Source: a virus
DNA: 64,000 bases
Virus record (IMG/VR): IMGVR_UViG_3300023109_003600
Location: 1 to 64,000 of that record
Reading direction: 5' to 3' (one strand)
In this document: positions 49,807 to 61,729 of the stretch, piece by piece
Numbering within the stretch: the first letter of the stretch is position 1
Layout: each line of letters begins with the position of its first letter
Translations under genes and position numbers: made by a program
Notes under the pieces: model-generated
Told to the model about the DNA's origin: nothing
The model's database searches: none
What the model saw: the letters and a program-made list of their open reading frames with translations, nothing else

Positions 49807-49815
49807 ATGTATCAT

Positions 49816-50550
49816 ATGATTCCTTTATTTAAATCTCACTATAGTATTGGCAAAAGCATCCTTAGGCTAGGTGGAGGACAAGGTATATTCGACATAGCAA
49901 AAGATTTAAATTTAAAAAAAGTAGTGCTAGTAGAAGATAGCTTAACAGGATTCCTTGAAACCGCAAAAGTCAGCAAGGAGTATAAAATAGACTTTATATT
50001 TGGGTTAAGAATCTCCTTATGCGAATCAGATCTTTCGGCAGAAACAAATGATTGTCATAAAATTATAGTTTTTGCAAAAAACGGAGAAGGTTGCAAGCTA
50101 TTAAATAAGATCTACACAAAAGCTTTCTCTAATGGCAATCAAAGTATTTTAATCAAAGATCTAAAAAAACTATGGAATGAAAAATTATTAAAACTTTCAA
50201 TCCCTTTTTATGATTCTTTTATTTTTAACAATACATTATTATTTTCAAAATGCATGCCCTCTTTTGATTTTACAGAACCCACTTTTTTCTTAGAAGAAAA
50301 CGGATTACCATTTGATAACATCATCAAAGAAGAGGTTAAAGAATTTTGCAAAAAACAAAGCATGAAAATGGAAAACGCTAAAACAATTTACTACACAAAA
50401 AGAGAAGACTTCTCAGCTTTTCAAACTTATAAACTAATATGTAATAGGTCAGGATGGAGGGCAAAATCGACTTCGCTAGAGTGCCCGAACCTAGACCACT
50501 TCGGCAGCCAAGATTTCTGCGTAGAGAGCTTTGAACTTGCAACATTATAA
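49816..50550 (+). CDS. Stand-alone PHP domain of DNA polymerase III alpha, metal site degenerate
   Basis: The protein has 244 aa and matches the N-terminal PHP domain of DnaE: 'FKSHYSIGKSIL', 'IFDIAKDLNLKKVVLVEDS', 'HKIIVFAKNGEGCKLLNKI'. Metal-binding positions are mostly lost: only one His of HxH remains in SHYS, the TDH position reads VEDS, and the GxE position reads GLRI. It probably keeps only a structural role in the polymerase. It is followed by the exonuclease gene after 5 bases and then by the polymerase gene, so the usual single chain is split over three genes. Confidence 0.7.
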   Translation: MIPLFKSHYSIGKSILRLGGGQGIFDIAKDLNLKKVVLVEDSLTGFLETAKVSKEYKIDFIFGLRISLCESDLSAETNDCHKIIVFAKNGEGCKLLNKIYTKAFSNGNQSILIKDLKKLWNEKLLKLSIPFYDSFIFNNTLLFSKCMPSFDFTEPTFFLEENGLPFDNIIKEEVKEFCKKQSMKMENAKTIYYTKREDFSAFQTYKLICNRSGWRAKSTSLECPNLDHFGSQDFCVESFELATL

Positions 50551-50555
50551 AAAAA

Positions 50556-51197
50556 ATGAACAATAACTTATTAAGATTCAACTCTCAACAAAAATATATT
50601 ATATTTGATTACGAAACCTGTAATTTAAATCTTGGTAGTACAGAAAATAAACCTTGGCAACTTTCATTTATCGTAGCTTCTAATAATAAAATTCACGAAA
50701 CTCATGATTACTATTTGCGCTGGGAAGACTTAAATATTTCTAAAGATGCTGCGAAGATTACTGGTTTCTCAAAATCAAAATACGACAAGCTTGCTGTATG
50801 CCCCAGAAAAGCTTTAGATCACTTTGAATCTTTCTTATATAATAAAAATTATATTCCAGTGGGCCACAACATATTAGGCTTTGATGTTTACATTCATAAT
50901 ATACATAGAAAACTCTTAAACAAGAAACCTGATTACAGCTATATCAATAGAGCTATAGATACAAATTGCCTAGCCAAGGGAATTGCTAAACAATTAACTA
51001 AGCCTCAAAGCAAAAGCACAATTGCTTGGCAGTATAGCTTAAATCAAATCATAGAAAGGGGGCTAAAAACAAGTTTGCAAATGTGTGCGAAAAAATACAA
51101 GATAGATTTTGACCCAACTAAGCTTCATGATGCACTGTATGATATTAAAATTAATCACCAAGTACTTAACAAACAGTTATGGGAGGTAGAAGTATGA
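50556..51197 (+). CDS. DnaQ-type 3'-5' proofreading exonuclease
   Basis: The protein has 213 aa. The DEDDh catalytic set is complete: D18 and E20 (FDYET), D110 (HNILGFD), and H191 and D196 (HDALYD). It acts as the proofreading subunit for the polymerase encoded next. Position between the PHP and polymerase genes parallels the exonuclease insertion in the PHP domain of PolC, although the sequence is of general DnaQ type. The stop overlaps the polymerase ATG (ATGA). Confidence 0.85.
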   Translation: MNNNLLRFNSQQKYIIFDYETCNLNLGSTENKPWQLSFIVASNNKIHETHDYYLRWEDLNISKDAAKITGFSKSKYDKLAVCPRKALDHFESFLYNKNYIPVGHNILGFDVYIHNIHRKLLNKKPDYSYINRAIDTNCLAKGIAKQLTKPQSKSTIAWQYSLNQIIERGLKTSLQMCAKKYKIDFDPTKLHDALYDIKINHQVLNKQLWEVEV

Positions 51198-53760: not shown

Positions 53761-56202
53761 ATGAATATGGAACTTAAACCCAACTTTACACCCCGAGCGC
53801 AAGAAGTTATTGCAGCTTCAAGAAAGCTAGCTTTAAACTATAATAAAAGAGTAGTTAACGAAGAACATTTATTTCTTGCTTTAGCGAAAGTAGATACTCA
53901 ATCGCTAGAAACTCTCTTTTCGGCATTTGATCTAGAAAGAAAAAATCTTATACTTTTTATATCCAAAAAGCTTAAAAAAAATACATCAGCGCCAACAAAA
54001 AAAAATTACTTCTCAGGAGAATTTAAATCAATCCTAGGGGGAGCGGTATTAGAAGCCGAAAAACACGAGCATGACTACATAGGAGTACAACATATACTAC
54101 TTTCAGTGTTCAAAAAACAAGACAATACAATTTGTCTTTTTTTTATAGAAAACGGAATCAGTGTCGAGTCATGCATATTAACAATTAGATCTCAATTTTT
54201 AATTAGTTCTTCTTCTGAAACTTTAGAGTCTAGCAGGCTATCCTCAGAATCAAATTATATCCCTAAAATAGAAGAAGAATATAAAGAAGGTCTAAAGTCT
54301 AATTTCTTTCATTGCATGAACACAAAAGCAATGCAAGGAAAATATGACGAAGTTATTGGTAGAGATCAAGAAATTAAAGATATTTCGGAAGTATTATGCA
54401 GGAGAAGTAAAAATAATCCTATACTCCTAGGGGATGCAGGAGTTGGAAAAACTGCAGTTGTAGAAGGTTTATCTCAAAAAATAGTAGAAGGTTCTGTAAC
54501 AGAATTTCTGTACAAAAAAAGAATTTATTCGCTAGATATGGCAAGCATGATTGCTGGCACAAAATATAGAGGGCAATTTGAAGAAAGGCTCAAAAATACT
54601 ATGGAAGAAATCCAGAAAGATAAAGACGCGATTATTTTTATAGACGAAATTCACTCAATTGTAGGCGCGGGAAGCGCTGAGGGAACTATGGACGCAGCAA
54701 ATATACTAAAACCAATGCTAGCAAGGGGCGATATCATGTGCATAGGAGCGACCACGCAAGAAGAATACAGAAAAACTATATTAAAAGATGGAGCATTAGA
54801 TAGAAGATTTCAACCGATCCATATTAAAGAGCCAACGCCTTCGGAATGTAAAGAAATATTAAACGGTCTCAAAGAAAAATATGAATCATTTCATCAAGTT
54901 AAGTATGAGGAAAATGTTGTAGAAAATTCCATCAAACTGTCCTCAAGGTTTATCTTAGATAGACAGCTTCCAGATAAAGCCATAGACTTACTAGATCAAG
55001 CTGGATCCAAAGCTAAAATTTCAGCATTTAAGCGTCCTGAAGAAGCGTTACAAATAGAAGAAGAGTTAAACGGTCTATACGAAATAGAGTCTACTTCTAG
55101 CGAACCTAATGTAATTATGAAGAAAAGAGATGCCTTAATGAAAAAATATCAAAATATAATTGAAGGTTGGGCAGAACAATCCACTTTAAAGAAAATTTTT
55201 GTAACAAATAAAGAATTATTTCAAGTAGTATCCCAAAAAACTGGGGTACCTATCGAAGATATCTCGAGCTCTGATACAGACAAATTTCTAAATTTAGAAA
55301 ACTCCTTAAAAAATGTCATCATCGGCCAAGACCCAGCAATTGAATCTATTTCAGAAACACTTATAAGGAACAAAGCAGGCTTAAGGGATGAACAAAAGCC
55401 TATAGGTAGTTTTTTATTTTTGGGTAGTAGCGGTGTAGGTAAAACTTACCTAGCAAAACAGGTGGCGAGTTTAGCGTTCGGAGACTCTAGTGATTTAATA
55501 CATATAGATATGTCAGAGTTTTCAGAGCAAGCTTCAACGGCTAAATTTGTAGGGGCATCGCCAGGATATATAGGTTTTGAGTCATCTGGAGCAATTACAG
55601 AAAGAGTAAGAAAGAAACCTTATTCAGTTTTATTGTTTGATGAGGTAGAAAAAGCTCACGAAGACGTGACGAACTTGCTACTACAGATACTAGAAGAAGG
55701 TAGGCTAACAGATAGTTCAGGAAGAACAATTTCCTTTAGAAATGTAATCGTAATCATAACAGGAAATATTGGGTCAAATTTCATGCAAAAGAATAATTCA
55801 GTAGGATTTATGCCTTCAAATTCGGAAGAAGACATTAATCAAAAGGTTATCGCAGAAGCAAGAAAAAAACTAAAACCAGAGCTCATCAATAGGATAGAGT
55901 CTATAATAAACTTCAAGAATTTCGAAGAAGCTCATTTGAAAAAAATCTCTGGACTGGAATTAGAAAAAAGCATGTCAAGAATAGAGGGCTCTATGGATAA
56001 AATTAATATAAAACCTTCGGTTTTTTCTTACATTGCTCAAAAAGCGCTAGAGCTCAATGATGGAGCGAGGCCAATCAAAAATATAATTAAAAAAGAAGTA
56101 GAGAACCCTTTGGCAAAATTAATTCTTCAAAACAAATCCTACGAGTCTAAAACACTAAGTATATCCGTAGTAAAAAATTGCATAAAAGTTTTATTGACTT
56201 AG
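53761..56202 (+). CDS. clpC: ClpC-type AAA+ protein unfoldase
   Basis: The protein has 813 aa. A Clp N-domain (about 5-145) with two repeats is followed by a first AAA+ module (Walker A GDAGVGKT at 224-231, 'IIFIDEIHSIVGAG'), a short middle segment, and a second AAA+ module (GSSGVGKT at 555-562, 'LLFDEVEKAH'). 'NSVGF' (VGF at 681-683) fits the ClpP-docking loop position, so it could feed host ClpP; no ClpP gene is in the window. The tmRNA gene starts 44 bases after its stop. An in-frame GTG at 53749 is a less likely start. Confidence 0.92.
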   Translation: MNMELKPNFTPRAQEVIAASRKLALNYNKRVVNEEHLFLALAKVDTQSLETLFSAFDLERKNLILFISKKLKKNTSAPTKKNYFSGEFKSILGGAVLEAEKHEHDYIGVQHILLSVFKKQDNTICLFFIENGISVESCILTIRSQFLISSSSETLESSRLSSESNYIPKIEEEYKEGLKSNFFHCMNTKAMQGKYDEVIGRDQEIKDISEVLCRRSKNNPILLGDAGVGKTAVVEGLSQKIVEGSVTEFLYKKRIYSLDMASMIAGTKYRGQFEERLKNTMEEIQKDKDAIIFIDEIHSIVGAGSAEGTMDAANILKPMLARGDIMCIGATTQEEYRKTILKDGALDRRFQPIHIKEPTPSECKEILNGLKEKYESFHQVKYEENVVENSIKLSSRFILDRQLPDKAIDLLDQAGSKAKISAFKRPEEALQIEEELNGLYEIESTSSEPNVIMKKRDALMKKYQNIIEGWAEQSTLKKIFVTNKELFQVVSQKTGVPIEDISSSDTDKFLNLENSLKNVIIGQDPAIESISETLIRNKAGLRDEQKPIGSFLFLGSSGVGKTYLAKQVASLAFGDSSDLIHIDMSEFSEQASTAKFVGASPGYIGFESSGAITERVRKKPYSVLLFDEVEKAHEDVTNLLLQILEEGRLTDSSGRTISFRNVIVIITGNIGSNFMQKNNSVGFMPSNSEEDINQKVIAEARKKLKPELINRIESIINFKNFEEAHLKKISGLELEKSMSRIEGSMDKINIKPSVFSYIAQKALELNDGARPIKNIIKKEVENPLAKLILQNKSYESKTLSISVVKNCIKVLLT

Positions 56203-56222
56203 CGCGTATATAGGTGTACTAT
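56194..56222 (+). promoter_or_regulatory. Promoter of the tmRNA gene
   Basis: TTGACT (56194-56199, within the last codons of clpC), a 17-base spacer and TACTAT (56217-56222). TATACT at 56220 with a longer spacer is an alternative -10. The mature tmRNA begins 24 bases later. Confidence 0.65.
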
Positions 56223-56246
56223 ACTTATAGTTCTTTAACAGTTTAT

Positions 56247-56680
56247 GGGGGTGTTCTGGATTCGACTGAAGTTGAATTCTAACACCGCAAGAGGGAGATT
56301 GCACTACGGCTCCCCCATCAATGTGCAAAAGCTTTACATGGCTCTAAAAAACATGTTAGAGCTCTCGGCTTCAAAAATCGTATCGCTGCAAAGCGCTTCG
56401 GTTATAAGAGCCGTAAGCTCGCCCTAGCAGCATAGGCTGCTAGCCTCTTACTTCTTGACGCAGATACAGAGGTAAAGAGGTCATCAATCTGCAAAACAGA
56501 AAAAGTTTATCTGTATCAAAAACTGTACCGCTGAGTATTCGGAGGCCCTAGTTCTAGGTGAATAATTGAAACAGAGGGTTGGATGTTAATATCAAAACCA
56601 TAAAAAAAATTAACTATACTTGTAGACGTGTTAGCTTGAAGGCTATCAGGACGCGGGTTCAACTCCCGCCACCTCCACCA
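56247..56680 (+). ncRNA. ssrA: tmRNA (transfer-messenger RNA)
   Basis: The RNA has 434 nt. The 5' end GGGGGUG pairs with CACCUCC before ACCA at the 3' end, and the CCA is encoded. 'CTGGATTCGACTG' near the 5' end and 'GGGTTCAACTCCC' at 56655-56667 are the hallmark D-region and T-arm sequences. An H-type pseudoknot PK1 is visible: GGGAG 56293-56297 with CTCCC 56310-56314, and TGCAC 56300-56304 with GTGCA 56323-56327. The tag frame ends KSRKLALAA with stop TAG at 56433-56435, set in a CTAGCAGC/GCTGCTAG stem. The resume codon is probably GGC at 56340 (31-residue tag). A T-run follows the gene. It rescues stalled ribosomes and marks products for proteolysis. Confidence 0.95.
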
Positions 56681-56721
56681 TTTTTTAATCATAAAACCAC
56701 AAACAAGTGGTATTATATAAT

Positions 56722-59004
56722 ATGAAAATATTATTTACCATAATTTTTATTGCTGCATCAAGCCTTGCAGGCGCAACCGTACCGACCCTCTTCTTCCAAG
56801 ACGGCAGATCCTTGGAAGCTAATATCATTGAAGCAAATTTCACACACGCCTTGATTGAAAGACGAAGAGATTTGCAGCGCTTTAGAATTGCGATCAACTC
56901 TTTAACAGAAGATAATCAAGCGTTTATAAAAAATAATTTTACACCCAGTCACCAAGCTTTACCCAAATTTAAAAAACCCTTAAACGAAAAAGATCTGCTT
57001 AGTCACTCTAGATATATAGATACTTTAATCGAAAGAAAACTTAGATCATATAATCTACAGCCAAACAAAGAAGCGGAAGACGAAGTTTTTCTGCGAAGAA
57101 CCTATCTTAAGATTATAGGCAGAACACCCTCCCTTTTAGAAGTTAAAGGGTTTGAAGAAAATAGAAGCAAAAACAAAAGGCGAGAGCTTATAGATTCTCT
57201 TTTAGGTAGCGAGGGTTATGTTAGCCATTGGTTTAATTTTTGGGCAGATATTTTAAGAATAAAAGATAGATTAAACAATAGAGTATCAGGCATACCTTAT
57301 AAAAATTATGTCAAGAAGTTTGTATCCAACAATCAACCTTATGACGAATGGGTAAGGGAATTGCTTTCTTCTTCTGGGCCTCTATGGAAAGAAGGTAGCG
57401 AAGGAGTAAGTTATTTTGCAAGAGATGTCAATATGCCTCTTGATAACATGTCAAACACTGTTAGAATTTTCTTAGGAACAAGTCTGGAATGCGCGCAATG
57501 CCATGATCATCCTTTTGACAGATGGACGCAAAAACAGTTTTATGAAATGGCTGCATTTACAAGCGGGTCAACAAATCTTAGGAGAAAAAACGTACCAAAC
57601 TTGGGCAAATTCAATCAATTAGTCCGTGAAGAACAGAAAAGGTTAGAGCAAGAAGGAGATCCAAATAAATCTAGAAGATTAAGGGATGCATCACGATCAG
57701 TGCAAGACATCCTACAAACAGGATTAGATAGTTTAGGTTCGGGAAAAATTAATTTACCGAAAGATTATCAATATGATAATGCGAAACCAAATGAGCAACT
57801 ATCAGGCAAAACTATTTTTGGATTAGATGTAGAGATTAAAACTAAAGCTCCAGAATCAGGCACTAGAGAAATCTACGCCAACTGGTTAGCTTCAGAATCT
57901 AACCCTAGATTTACAGCGGTAATAGTTAATAGACTATGGAAGGAAGTTTTTGGGTTGGCATTAATTGAGCCGCTAGATAATATGTTTGATGACACGATAC
58001 CTACAGATATAAAACTACAGCTACACCTCGAAAAAGTTATGATTGCCTTAAATTATGATTTAAAAGAATTTTTAAGAATATTATATAATACAAAAACTTT
58101 TCAGAGAGCTTCTGTTATTAGAGATGTTATACCGCGAGATGAAAAAGATACAGTCATGCCTATAGAAGTAAAGTGGATTATAGCGGGGCCAAATACTGAA
58201 AAGCAATCTCAAAATGCTGTACCATTCTTCTACCAAGGGCCTTTAGTTGAAAGGATGAGTGGCGAACAAATTTGGGACTCTTTAGTTAATTTAACTTTTA
58301 ATAATATAGATTCAAGAAAATTACAGCAGAACACAAAAGGATATGAAGACTTCGATAGATTCTCAAGCATGACTGGAGAAGAGCTTTTTGAAAATATTAT
58401 GAATAAACTCAACAACAAAGAAAATGCAGGGTCAAAAATAGCGACAAAATTTACAGAACCTATTAATACAGAATGCCCTATAAAACCAGGCAGGGAAATC
58501 GACCCAACCTTATTAGCCTTAAATGAAGATGGTCAGACAGTAGCGTTTTGTTGTGAATCTTGCCTAGACAAATTCAAATCTCAAAAGAAACAAAAAAAAG
58601 ATGACTACAAACAAAACTACACTAAGGACAGGAATTCAGTCAGGGCGTCCGAACTAAGCTCTCCAGCACCCATAGGGCACCTCATAAGGGAGTTTGGCGG
58701 CTCAGACAGAGAACAGATAGAAAACTCGCACAAACAAGCTTCAGCAACCCAAGTACTTAATTTATTAAATGGTTTTGTAGAAACAAGGTTATTAAAAAAC
58801 AAAAATTCAGAGATAGTAAAGCAAATCAAATCACAAAAAAATTTAGAAGACAAAATTAAAGTTGCGTTCAAATCAATCCTAAATAGAGAAGCTTCAATAT
58901 CAGAATTAAAATTATTTAAATCGTCACTTAAACAGGGTAAAGAGGTATATAAAGAGATAGTATGGACGCTGGTAAACAGTCACGAATTTATATTTATTAA
59001 ATAA
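56722..59004 (+). CDS. Secreted SHD1-DUF1549-DUF1553 protein with CxxCH motif and YHS-like insert
   Basis: The protein has 760 aa from the ATG at 56722. A signal peptide (1-18) is followed by an SHD1-like domain (about 20-72, FFQDGRSLEANIIEA). DUF1549 lies at about 95-300 ('VFLRRTYLKIIGRTPSLLE', 'HWFNFWADILRI') with CAQCHDHPFDRW holding CxxCH at 257-261. DUF1553 begins near 390 ('NPRFTAVIVNRLWKEVFG') and continues towards the end. Between its parts, residues about 583-620 form a YHS-like metal domain (C585; C610, C611, C614). This domain set is typical of Planctomycetota and Verrucomicrobiota chromosomes, where its function is unknown. It looks acquired from a host. Confidence 0.85.
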   Translation: MKILFTIIFIAASSLAGATVPTLFFQDGRSLEANIIEANFTHALIERRRDLQRFRIAINSLTEDNQAFIKNNFTPSHQALPKFKKPLNEKDLLSHSRYIDTLIERKLRSYNLQPNKEAEDEVFLRRTYLKIIGRTPSLLEVKGFEENRSKNKRRELIDSLLGSEGYVSHWFNFWADILRIKDRLNNRVSGIPYKNYVKKFVSNNQPYDEWVRELLSSSGPLWKEGSEGVSYFARDVNMPLDNMSNTVRIFLGTSLECAQCHDHPFDRWTQKQFYEMAAFTSGSTNLRRKNVPNLGKFNQLVREEQKRLEQEGDPNKSRRLRDASRSVQDILQTGLDSLGSGKINLPKDYQYDNAKPNEQLSGKTIFGLDVEIKTKAPESGTREIYANWLASESNPRFTAVIVNRLWKEVFGLALIEPLDNMFDDTIPTDIKLQLHLEKVMIALNYDLKEFLRILYNTKTFQRASVIRDVIPRDEKDTVMPIEVKWIIAGPNTEKQSQNAVPFFYQGPLVERMSGEQIWDSLVNLTFNNIDSRKLQQNTKGYEDFDRFSSMTGEELFENIMNKLNNKENAGSKIATKFTEPINTECPIKPGREIDPTLLALNEDGQTVAFCCESCLDKFKSQKKQKKDDYKQNYTKDRNSVRASELSSPAPIGHLIREFGGSDREQIENSHKQASATQVLNLLNGFVETRLLKNKNSEIVKQIKSQKNLEDKIKVAFKSILNREASISELKLFKSSLKQGKEVYKEIVWTLVNSHEFIFIK

Positions 59005-59016
59005 AAAAAAAGAAAA

Positions 59017-60300
59017 ATGAACATAAACGAATTAGGAAGAAGAGAATTTATAGCTCAAGCAGCAAAAAGTTGCTTGGGAGTAGGCTTGATGCCAATGGCA
59101 GGAGCTTATATACATAATAGCGTCGAGGCACTACAGCCAGGAGTTAGACCAGCAACAGCCCGTCATGTTATATATTTAAATATGGCAGGAGCAATGTCAC
59201 ACCTAGACACCTTTGGTCCAAAACCAGAAGTCCCAGATATTCAAGGTCCGACAAAATCAATCGCAACTACAGCAGATGGAATTCTATTATCGGAAAACTT
59301 ACCGAATACTGCGCAGTTTATGCATAAAGCTTCCGTCATTAAAACTATGGTATCTAGCCAGGGAGCGCACGAACAAGCTAGCTATCTCATGCACACTAGC
59401 TATCTCAAGAGAGGTACAATTGTTCATCCTACTTTTGGAAGTTGGGTTTCAAAGCTGGCAGGCTCAATCAATACTACCGTACCTGCAAATATTAAAATTG
59501 GAGGTGGAGGAGGAGGAGCTGGTTTTCTTGAATCAAAATATGGTGCTCTGCCAATAAATAATCCTCGCTCTGGTTTGGCTAATAGTAAAATGGCTTCTTA
59601 TTTAGATTTAGAAACCTTTCAAGGCAGAATTTCTTTGGCAGAGAAATTAAATCAAAACTTTTCTACAGATTTTCAATTAAAACAAGTAAGAGCTTATTCT
59701 GATTTATACAGGGATGCAGTTAAGCTAATGAATAGCGATGACTTAAATGCTTTTGATATAACTAAAGAGTCGCAGCAAACAAGCGAACTTTATGGTGCTA
59801 CTAATTTTGGGCAAGGTTGCCTTTTAGCAAGAAGGTTAGTTGAAAATGGCGTTCGTTACGTTGAAGTTACAAGAGGTGGATGGGATACGCATGATAATAA
59901 CTTTGAAAGAGTTGCGGCAAATTGCGCGGATATTGATCAAGCTTTAAGCGGTTTGCTTTACGATTTAGATAGACGAGGACTTTTAAGCGAAACGCTTGTA
60001 GTGTTGACTTCTGAATTTGGAAGGACTCCAAACATCAACGGTAGAGACGGAAGAGATCATTGGCCATATTGCTTTACGGCTTTTATGGCGGGAGGAGGAA
60101 TCAAAGAAGGCTTCTCTTACGGAGAAAGTGACAAGGCAGGTCGAAGCCCAGTGGAAGGAAAAGGCATTAAGCCAGAAGACTTAAATGCTACTATAGCATA
60201 CGCCTTAGGGTTGTCAATAAATAGTCAGCAGTACTCCCCCTCAGGAAGACCTTTTACGATAGCGAATAAGGGAGAACCTTTACTTGACGTTATTTCTTAA
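59017..60300 (+). CDS. DUF1501 family protein with Tat-type signal
   Basis: The protein has 427 aa. The N-terminal 'GRREFIAQAAKSCLGVGLM' is a twin-arginine export signal. 'HVIYLNMAGAMSHLDTFGPKP' is the DUF1501 entry motif, followed by 'RYVEVTRGGWDTHDNNFE' and 'LVVLTSEFGRTPNINGRDGRDHW', the metal-site-like blocks of this alkaline-phosphatase-superfamily-related group. It partners the upstream gene exactly as in planctomycetal and verrucomicrobial genomes. Both proteins are predicted to be exported. Confidence 0.88.
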   Translation: MNINELGRREFIAQAAKSCLGVGLMPMAGAYIHNSVEALQPGVRPATARHVIYLNMAGAMSHLDTFGPKPEVPDIQGPTKSIATTADGILLSENLPNTAQFMHKASVIKTMVSSQGAHEQASYLMHTSYLKRGTIVHPTFGSWVSKLAGSINTTVPANIKIGGGGGGAGFLESKYGALPINNPRSGLANSKMASYLDLETFQGRISLAEKLNQNFSTDFQLKQVRAYSDLYRDAVKLMNSDDLNAFDITKESQQTSELYGATNFGQGCLLARRLVENGVRYVEVTRGGWDTHDNNFERVAANCADIDQALSGLLYDLDRRGLLSETLVVLTSEFGRTPNINGRDGRDHWPYCFTAFMAGGGIKEGFSYGESDKAGRSPVEGKGIKPEDLNATIAYALGLSINSQQYSPSGRPFTIANKGEPLLDVIS

Positions 60301-61150: not shown

Positions 61151-61179
61151 TTGACTTATTTTTTTAAAAATAGTAATAT
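61151..61179 (+). promoter_or_regulatory. Sigma70 promoter of the deoxyribosyltransferase-like gene
   Basis: TTGACT (61151-61156), a 17-base spacer and TAATAT (61174-61179) are followed 13 bases later by the ATG at 61193. A reading frame open from the TTG of the -35 box itself is therefore not the start. Confidence 0.75.
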
Positions 61180-61192
61180 ATACTTATATCAA

Positions 61193-61729
61193 ATGAATTT
61201 ACTAGAAAACACAAAAACATATTTAGTAGGACACATGCAATATCTTAGCGGAAGAAATTGGCGCGAAGAAATAACAGGGCAATTAAGCTCCTTAAATATA
61301 ACATGTTTTGATCCATACAAAAAACCATTCATGAAAGATGTTGAAGAAGACGAAGCCTCTAGGCTTGAAATGGAAACATGGATGAAGACCAAACAGTATG
61401 ATCGAGTTACGGATAGAATGAAAACCGTAAGAGCATACGACCTAAACTTAGTTGATCGTTCAGATTTTATTATTGCCCATCTTGTTCCAGATGTAGCTTC
61501 GTGGGGCAGTGCAGAAGAAATAGTTACAGCAGTACGAATGAAAAAACCTATTTTTATTAGCATGGAAGGTGGAAAGTCAAAGACACCTTTATGGATGCTA
61601 GGAATGCTACCTCATAAATATATTTATAATAGTCTTGACGAAGTAGTAGAAATGTTGTATGCTATAGACAATGGAAACAAACCGATAGATTCAGATAGGT
61701 GGAGATTACTACAGAAACAATTCAGATAA
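61193..61729 (+). CDS. Nucleoside 2-deoxyribosyltransferase-like protein
   Basis: The protein has 178 aa. 'KTYLVGHMQYLSGRNWREEI' and 'DLNLVDRSDFIIAHLVPDVASWGSAEEI' (split in two conserved blocks) match the flavodoxin-like fold of this family, with the acidic pair before the helix and the catalytic Glu in SAEEI. Phage members may act in base or nucleotide salvage; signalling-nucleotide hydrolysis by related folds is an alternative. It starts a rightward transcript divergent from the kinase fusion. Confidence 0.7.
   Translation: MNLLENTKTYLVGHMQYLSGRNWREEITGQLSSLNITCFDPYKKPFMKDVEEDEASRLEMETWMKTKQYDRVTDRMKTVRAYDLNLVDRSDFIIAHLVPDVASWGSAEEIVTAVRMKKPIFISMEGGKSKTPLWMLGMLPHKYIYNSLDEVVEMLYAIDNGNKPIDSDRWRLLQKQFR

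What the first reader, a model, noticed from the sequence alone, without database searches (positions are those of the whole stretch)
53761..56680. Viral ClpC unfoldase directly beside a complete tmRNA gene
A full tmRNA with encoded CCA, PK1 and an ALAA-ending tag lies 44 bases after a full-length ClpC-type unfoldase. Tag addition and tag-directed proteolysis are linked in bacteria, and here both parts are adjacent in what looks like a phage. The pair may reroute stalled or host proteins to degradation, or keep viral translation running in a degraded host. Phage tmRNAs are known in only a few groups; I know of no description of this pairing.
Basis: partly seen in the sequence, partly recalled or inferred. 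Interest (0 to 1): 0.8.

Follow-up and report, generated by a model that had tools for sequence, protein, structure and literature searches.

The report
Phage ribosome-rescue RNA beside ClpC unfoldase
A marine phage, probably infecting Verrucomicrobiota, carries its own ribosome-rescue RNA with a long, positively charged protein tag unlike its host's; it lies next to a ClpC protein-unfolding machine that is really tied to the phage's DNA polymerase gene, so both parts are genuine but their partnership is unproven.

Summary
A complete tmRNA (56247-56680) lies 44 bases after a full-length ClpC-type unfoldase (ATG 53761, or 53767; end 56202) in a large lytic-type phage, not a host contig. Independent viral contigs repeat the junction. 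The tmRNA belongs to a virus-specific family found in 58 viral contigs and in 0 of 384 genomes of the presumed host's class. It shows strong base-pair covariation and an invariant G3-U70 alanine signal. The window copy has a promoter-like site and leader. Its tag is 31 residues, net charge +10, GSKKHVRALGFKNRIAAKRFGYKSRKLALAA; presumed marine Opitutales hosts encode 17-residue tags of net charge -1 to -4. The tag codons look protein-constrained (pN/pS 0.17).

ClpC's fixed neighbour is DNA polymerase III alpha (79 of 80 viral loci; the 80th is truncated), not the tmRNA. Both are near-core in this lineage (tmRNA in 14 of 17 records of at least 100 kb), but immediate adjacency occurs in 5 of 37 records, in two separate clades. 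No SmpB or convincing ClpP was found, so host partners are needed. Most likely: a phage trans-translation RNA with its own tag, plus a replication-operon unfoldase using host ClpP. A dedicated tag-unfoldase pair remains possible and untested.

The parts
56247..56680 (+). tmRNA gene (ssrA), one-piece, with encoded CCA
   Evidence: Rfam RF00023 102.6 bits, full length; covariation across 33 non-redundant viral tmRNAs; fold z-score -4.0
56340..56435 (+). tag reading frame, resume codon GGC, GSKKHVRALGFKNRIAAKRFGYKSRKLALAA then TAG; 31 aa, net charge +10
   Evidence: Translation; UACAU just upstream of the GGC, as in the U-A...resume consensus (PMC2481249); ARAGORN on close relative L108 reads the same frame; pN/pS 0.17 among six related tags
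56293..56328 (+). pseudoknot 1, 11 bases upstream of the resume codon
   Evidence: Read from the sequence: GGGAG/CUCCC and UUGCAC/GUGCAA; the second stem covaries
56194..56222 (+). promoter-like site of the tmRNA, TTGACT-17-TACTAT, its -35 hexamer overlapping the end of clpC
   Evidence: Consensus scan, 9 of 12 matches, no more sites than shuffles give; similar TTGAC...TA-T elements upstream of several relatives and host copies
56230..56246 (+). leader GTTCTTTAACAGTTTAT, boxA-like
   Evidence: GTTCTTT(G/A)A-like leader upstream of most viral and all nine host ssrA genes examined
53761..56202 (+). ClpC-type AAA+ unfoldase, 813 aa, N-domain, D1, short middle domain, D2 with VGF loop
51179..53749 (+). 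DNA polymerase III alpha, polymerase part, immediately upstream of clpC
   Evidence: Pfam DNA_pol3_alpha 1.3e-59; adjacent to clpC in 79 of 80 viral loci
50556..51197 (+). DNA polymerase exonuclease subunit, same operon
   Evidence: phrog_192 7.1e-18; conserved upstream of dnaE
49807..50550 (+). PHP-domain part of DNA polymerase III alpha, same operon
   Evidence: Pfam PHP 3.4e-5, just under its cut-off, and phrog_405; conserved

Best explanation
This is a large tailed phage, probably of marine Opitutales (Verrucomicrobiota), that carries two genuine but separately anchored proteostasis genes. (1) Its own one-piece tmRNA, probably made from its own promoter, uses the host's AlaRS, EF-Tu, SmpB and ribosomes to free ribosomes stalled on broken mRNAs during infection, and adds a phage-specified, long, strongly basic tag ending in LALAA that marks the product for ClpP-linked degradation. 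(2) A ClpC unfoldase, encoded with the phage DNA polymerase III alpha, docks host ClpP through its VGF loop and mainly serves the replication programme by remodelling or removing replication or host proteins. Their adjacency here is a layout seen in two subclades; overlap in function, with ClpC as one consumer of tagged proteins, is plausible but not required. Shown: the genes, their conservation, selection on the RNA, codon-level constraint on the tag, conservation of the dnaE-clpC pair. Inferred: the host, expression, use of host SmpB and ClpP, the replication role of ClpC, and degradation of tagged products.
For: tmRNA family: 58 viral contigs; 0 of 384 genomes of the presumed host's class; 62 pairs over 33 sequences, 35 with two-sided changes, 98% of cells paired against 35-51% when slid; G3-U70 invariant in 32 of 32; tag pN/pS 0.17. 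Promoter-like site and leader. tmRNA in 14 of 17 dnaE-lineage records of at least 100 kb against 402 of 18,146 phage genomes in PMC9004378. ClpC: 79 of 80 next to dnaE, mostly 2-47 bases apart; [IVLM]GF loop found in 64 of 75, GTKYRGQFE pore loop in 74 of 75. No SmpB and no convincing ClpP in 22 records. Host: DUF1501 72-80% identical to marine Opitutales genomes; their own tags differ. Phage nature: rIIA/rIIB, UvsX, DnaB, PhoH; terminase in 11 of 22 related records.
Against: No expression or biochemical data. The promoter-like site is no more frequent than in shuffled sequence. When both genes are present they are on the same strand in 33 of 37 records and the tmRNA is within 6.2 kb downstream in 19 (uniform expectation about 1.5), so a looser functional link cannot be excluded, although shared descent can explain it. 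G000 is a fragment, so missing SmpB or ClpP is not proof of absence. The host is inferred from one acquired gene.
Confidence: 0.6

Rival explanations
1. Dedicated tag-unfoldase pair: the viral tag is recoded to be read by viral ClpC, so that stalled or host proteins are routed to ClpC-ClpP under phage control.
For: The tag differs sharply from that of presumed hosts in length and charge and looks protein-constrained; both genes are near-core in the lineage; immediate adjacency in two clades; tmRNA often downstream of clpC on the same strand.
Against: Tags in the lineage run from -10 to +11 in net charge, all with clpC of the same family; the tmRNA moves independently of clpC; clpC persists in long records where no tmRNA was found (G012, G127, G157); the LALAA end is the usual ClpX/ClpA signal.
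Confidence: 0.22
2. Competitor or decoy: the phage tmRNA mainly occupies SmpB and replaces host tmRNA so that host tagging is diverted; the basic tag protects or relocates proteins rather than degrading them.
For: Abundant competing tmRNA-like molecules titrating SmpB are known (TLD-only RNA in phage DS6A, discussed in PMC4131195); the basic tag is unusual.
Against: The whole mRNA-like domain, frame-setting UA and ALAA end are kept, and the tag codons look constrained; a decoy would not need these.
Confidence: 0.1
3. Chance cargo: an ssrA copy picked up from a host and carried without function.
For: The neighbouring DUF1549 and DUF1501 genes are clearly of host type.
Against: Lineage-wide presence, covariation, tag distinct from the host's, and no such tmRNA in 384 genomes of the presumed host's class.
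Confidence: 0.04
4. Assembly chimera joining host DNA to phage DNA at this point.
For: Host-like genes follow directly.
Against: The same junction with 43-58 base gaps in contigs from other metagenomes (G001, G082), and DUF1501 after the tmRNA again in G001 and in L241.
Confidence: 0.01

Closest known systems
Bacterial and phage one-piece tmRNA (Rfam RF00023); phage examples in marine myophages and many isolates (PMC9004378: 402 of 18,146 phage genomes), Bacillus phage G and mycobacteriophages such as Bxz1 (PMC4131195), huge phages that also carry SmpB (PMC7162821)
   Same: Full TLD with CCA and G3-U70, PK1, resume codon with upstream UA, tag ending ALAA
   Different: Virus-specific family with 20-40-residue tags of extreme charge, distinct from the presumed host's tag; near-core in one dnaE-clpC phage lineage; Melnitz has a two-piece tmRNA; no SmpB found here
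ClpC/MecB of Bacillus subtilis (PDB 3j3s, 7abr)
   Same: Two ATPase modules, N-domain, short middle domain, VGF loop; full-length match
   Different: Encoded with phage DNA polymerase III alpha; no viral ClpP found
PHROG 4871 phage ATP-dependent protease, as in Staphylococcus phage SpP and Sinorhizobium phage Phosso
   Same: Same phage protein family; tblastn relatives at 33-39% identity
   Different: No tmRNA annotated beside it in the two annotated stretches viewed
Sinorhizobium jumbo phage AP-J-162 (PMC11242549)
   Same: One phage genome reported with a tmRNA and six Clp proteins
   Different: Adjacency or functional pairing is not described

Membership tests
tmRNA (RF00023) | tRNA-like domain with CCA and G3-U70 | tested here: met
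   G-U at the third acceptor pair in 32 of 32
tmRNA (RF00023) | PK1 and frame-setting UA upstream of the resume codon | tested here: met
   Sequence and tag table, rules from PMC2481249
tmRNA (RF00023) | Tag frame with stop, degradation-type C terminus | tested here: met
   ...LALAA then TAG; codon constraint
tmRNA (RF00023) | Alanylation, SmpB binding, tagging in cells | not testable with these tools
   Needs an experiment; no SmpB found in the record
ClpC-type Hsp100 | Clp N-domain, two intact Walker A/B modules, pore loops | tested here: met
ClpC-type Hsp100 | ClpP-docking [VIL]GF loop | tested here: met
   NSVGFMP in the window; [IVLM]GF found by a simple pattern in 64 of 75 relatives
ClpC-type Hsp100 | Short middle domain, unlike ClpB | tested here: met
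   Alignment; best full-length match is ClpC in PDB, though NCBIfam, which showed no ClpC model among its matches, scores ClpB and ClpA below their cut-offs
Dedicated clpC-ssrA module | The two genes always travel together | tested here: not met
   5 of 37 immediately adjacent; clpC without a detected tmRNA in 3 of 17 long records

The most novel reading that the evidence does not exclude
A virus-controlled trans-translation pathway: the phage replaces the host's degradation tag with its own long charged tag, which its own ClpC reads, giving the phage private control of what host ClpP destroys.
Probability: 0.2. Interest if true: 0.8.

Novelty: new variant of a known kind. Interest (0 to 1): 0.55.

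Why it matters
Phage tmRNAs are usually treated as oddities or leftovers. Here is a large virus lineage in which a tmRNA is near-core, shows RNA-level and tag-level constraint, and encodes tags unlike those of its presumed hosts. That makes the question 'why do phages carry tmRNA?' testable: swap tags and measure burst size and turnover. It also ties a ClpC unfoldase firmly to a phage replication polymerase. ARAGORN, used in published surveys, misses the window tmRNA and 10 of the 32 related viral tmRNA loci scanned, so phage tmRNAs may be undercounted.

Tried and rejected
A single-sequence ClpC scan of viral contigs found nothing; an alignment query worked. Host-contig or chimera origin: rejected by independent contigs. 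Copy of the host ssrA: rejected by sequence, tag and the class-wide pattern search. A viral ClpP in G153 next to the same operon looked like support for ClpC-ClpP, but it matches head maturation protease families better (phrog_94, 4.6e-50), so it is not counted. No structure prediction was run: ClpC identity was already clear by sequence.

Full report
RF00023 matches the full model at 56247-56680 (102.6 bits), 44 bases after the ClpC stop. ARAGORN misses the window copy but reads the relative L108 with the same frame and almost the same tag. The ClpC is intact: Clp_N, two AAA modules and a D2-small domain, PHROG 4871 at 6e-226, ClpC/MecB as closest solved structure, and the VGF loop of ClpP-binding unfoldases.

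It is a phage. The record is a 121.6-kb linear IMG/VR contig with rIIA/rIIB, UvsX, DnaB, ribonucleotide reductase and PhoH. Records of the same dnaE-clpC lineage that hold both tmRNA and terminase exist, for example G082, whose clpC-tmRNA gap is 58 bases. The DUF1501 gene after the tmRNA is 72-80% identical to marine Opitutales genomes, which points to the host group; this is inference from one acquired gene.

The tmRNA is not a host copy. Nine host ssrA genes from genomes reached through DUF1501 encode 17-residue tags such as GENNIVNFEPELEALAA, net charge -1 to -4; the window tag is 31 residues, +10. A pattern for the viral type hits 58 viral contigs and none of 384 genomes of the presumed host's class. 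Across 33 non-redundant viral tmRNAs, 35 of 62 predicted pairs change on both sides and 98% of cells pair, against 35-51% when partners are slid. Because the structure was predicted from the same alignment, the cells-paired figure is favoured; the two-sided changes are the stronger evidence. The 31-residue tags show pN/pS 0.17 over six sequences; pairs are not independent and RNA structure may add constraint. A promoter-like site TTGACT-17-TACTAT and a boxA-like leader precede the RNA; the site count is not above shuffles, but similar elements recur upstream of several relatives.

What is ClpC tied to? In a scan with the phage DnaE, 79 of 80 loci have clpC directly after dnaE, and the 80th ends 94 bases after dnaE. 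The tmRNA occurs in 14 of 17 of these records of at least 100 kb, against 402 of 18,146 phage genomes in a published survey (PMC9004378; that survey used ARAGORN, so the two rates are not strictly comparable). In 37 records with both genes, the tmRNA is within 153 bases in 5, within about 1.4 kb in 11 and within 6.2 kb downstream in 19 (uniform expectations 0.07, 0.46 and 1.49; records are related, so this is not a test of independence). In the three roughly 1.3-kb cases opened, one gene of about 430-440 aa lies between. A DnaE tree puts the immediate layout in two separate clades.

Missing partners: no SmpB in 22 records; one ClpP-like protein, in G153, better matched by head maturation proteases. 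So trans-translation would need host SmpB, and ClpC would need host ClpP.

Most likely working: the phage supplies a rescue RNA with its own tag, on host machinery, and separately a polymerase-linked ClpC that can dock host ClpP. Whether ClpC reads the tag is open. In the papers searched, phage tmRNA (PMC9004378, PMC4131195, PMC7162821, PMC12656738) and a phage with both tmRNA and Clp proteins (PMC11242549) are described; a clpC-ssrA pairing is not. Tag lengths of 8-35 are known (PMC8012679), so 31 is long but within range; some relatives read as 38-40.

Noticed in passing
window 56707-60300: Host-type DUF1549/DUF1553 and DUF1501 genes, families mostly seen here in Planctomycetes and Verrucomicrobiota, follow the tmRNA; DUF1501 also follows it in G001 and L241, and both genes in L243 and L283. 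Phage use unknown.
   Followed up: partly
window 61151-61729: A nucleoside deoxyribosyltransferase-like protein, 73-94% identical across the phage relatives that match, among the most conserved proteins near the tmRNA.
   Followed up: partly
L103, L104, L259, L270: A subset of the viral tmRNAs encodes long acidic tags (34-40 aa, net charge -9 to -10, ending EMVA or PMAA) instead of basic ones.
   Followed up: partly
L246, L248, L282, L283, L096 and window tag: The 31-32-residue basic tag looks like an internal duplication (RALGFKNR-IAAKRFGYKSR-KLALAA) of the 20-residue tag of relatives.
   Followed up: no
G153 162921-163409 (L371): A ClpP-like protein, probably a head maturation protease, sits directly upstream of the PHP-exo-dnaE-clpC operon.
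   Followed up: partly
G000 71000-106000: A long run of glycosyltransferase, sulfotransferase-like and nucleotide-sugar genes, judged mostly from sequence starts and cross-matches.
   Followed up: no
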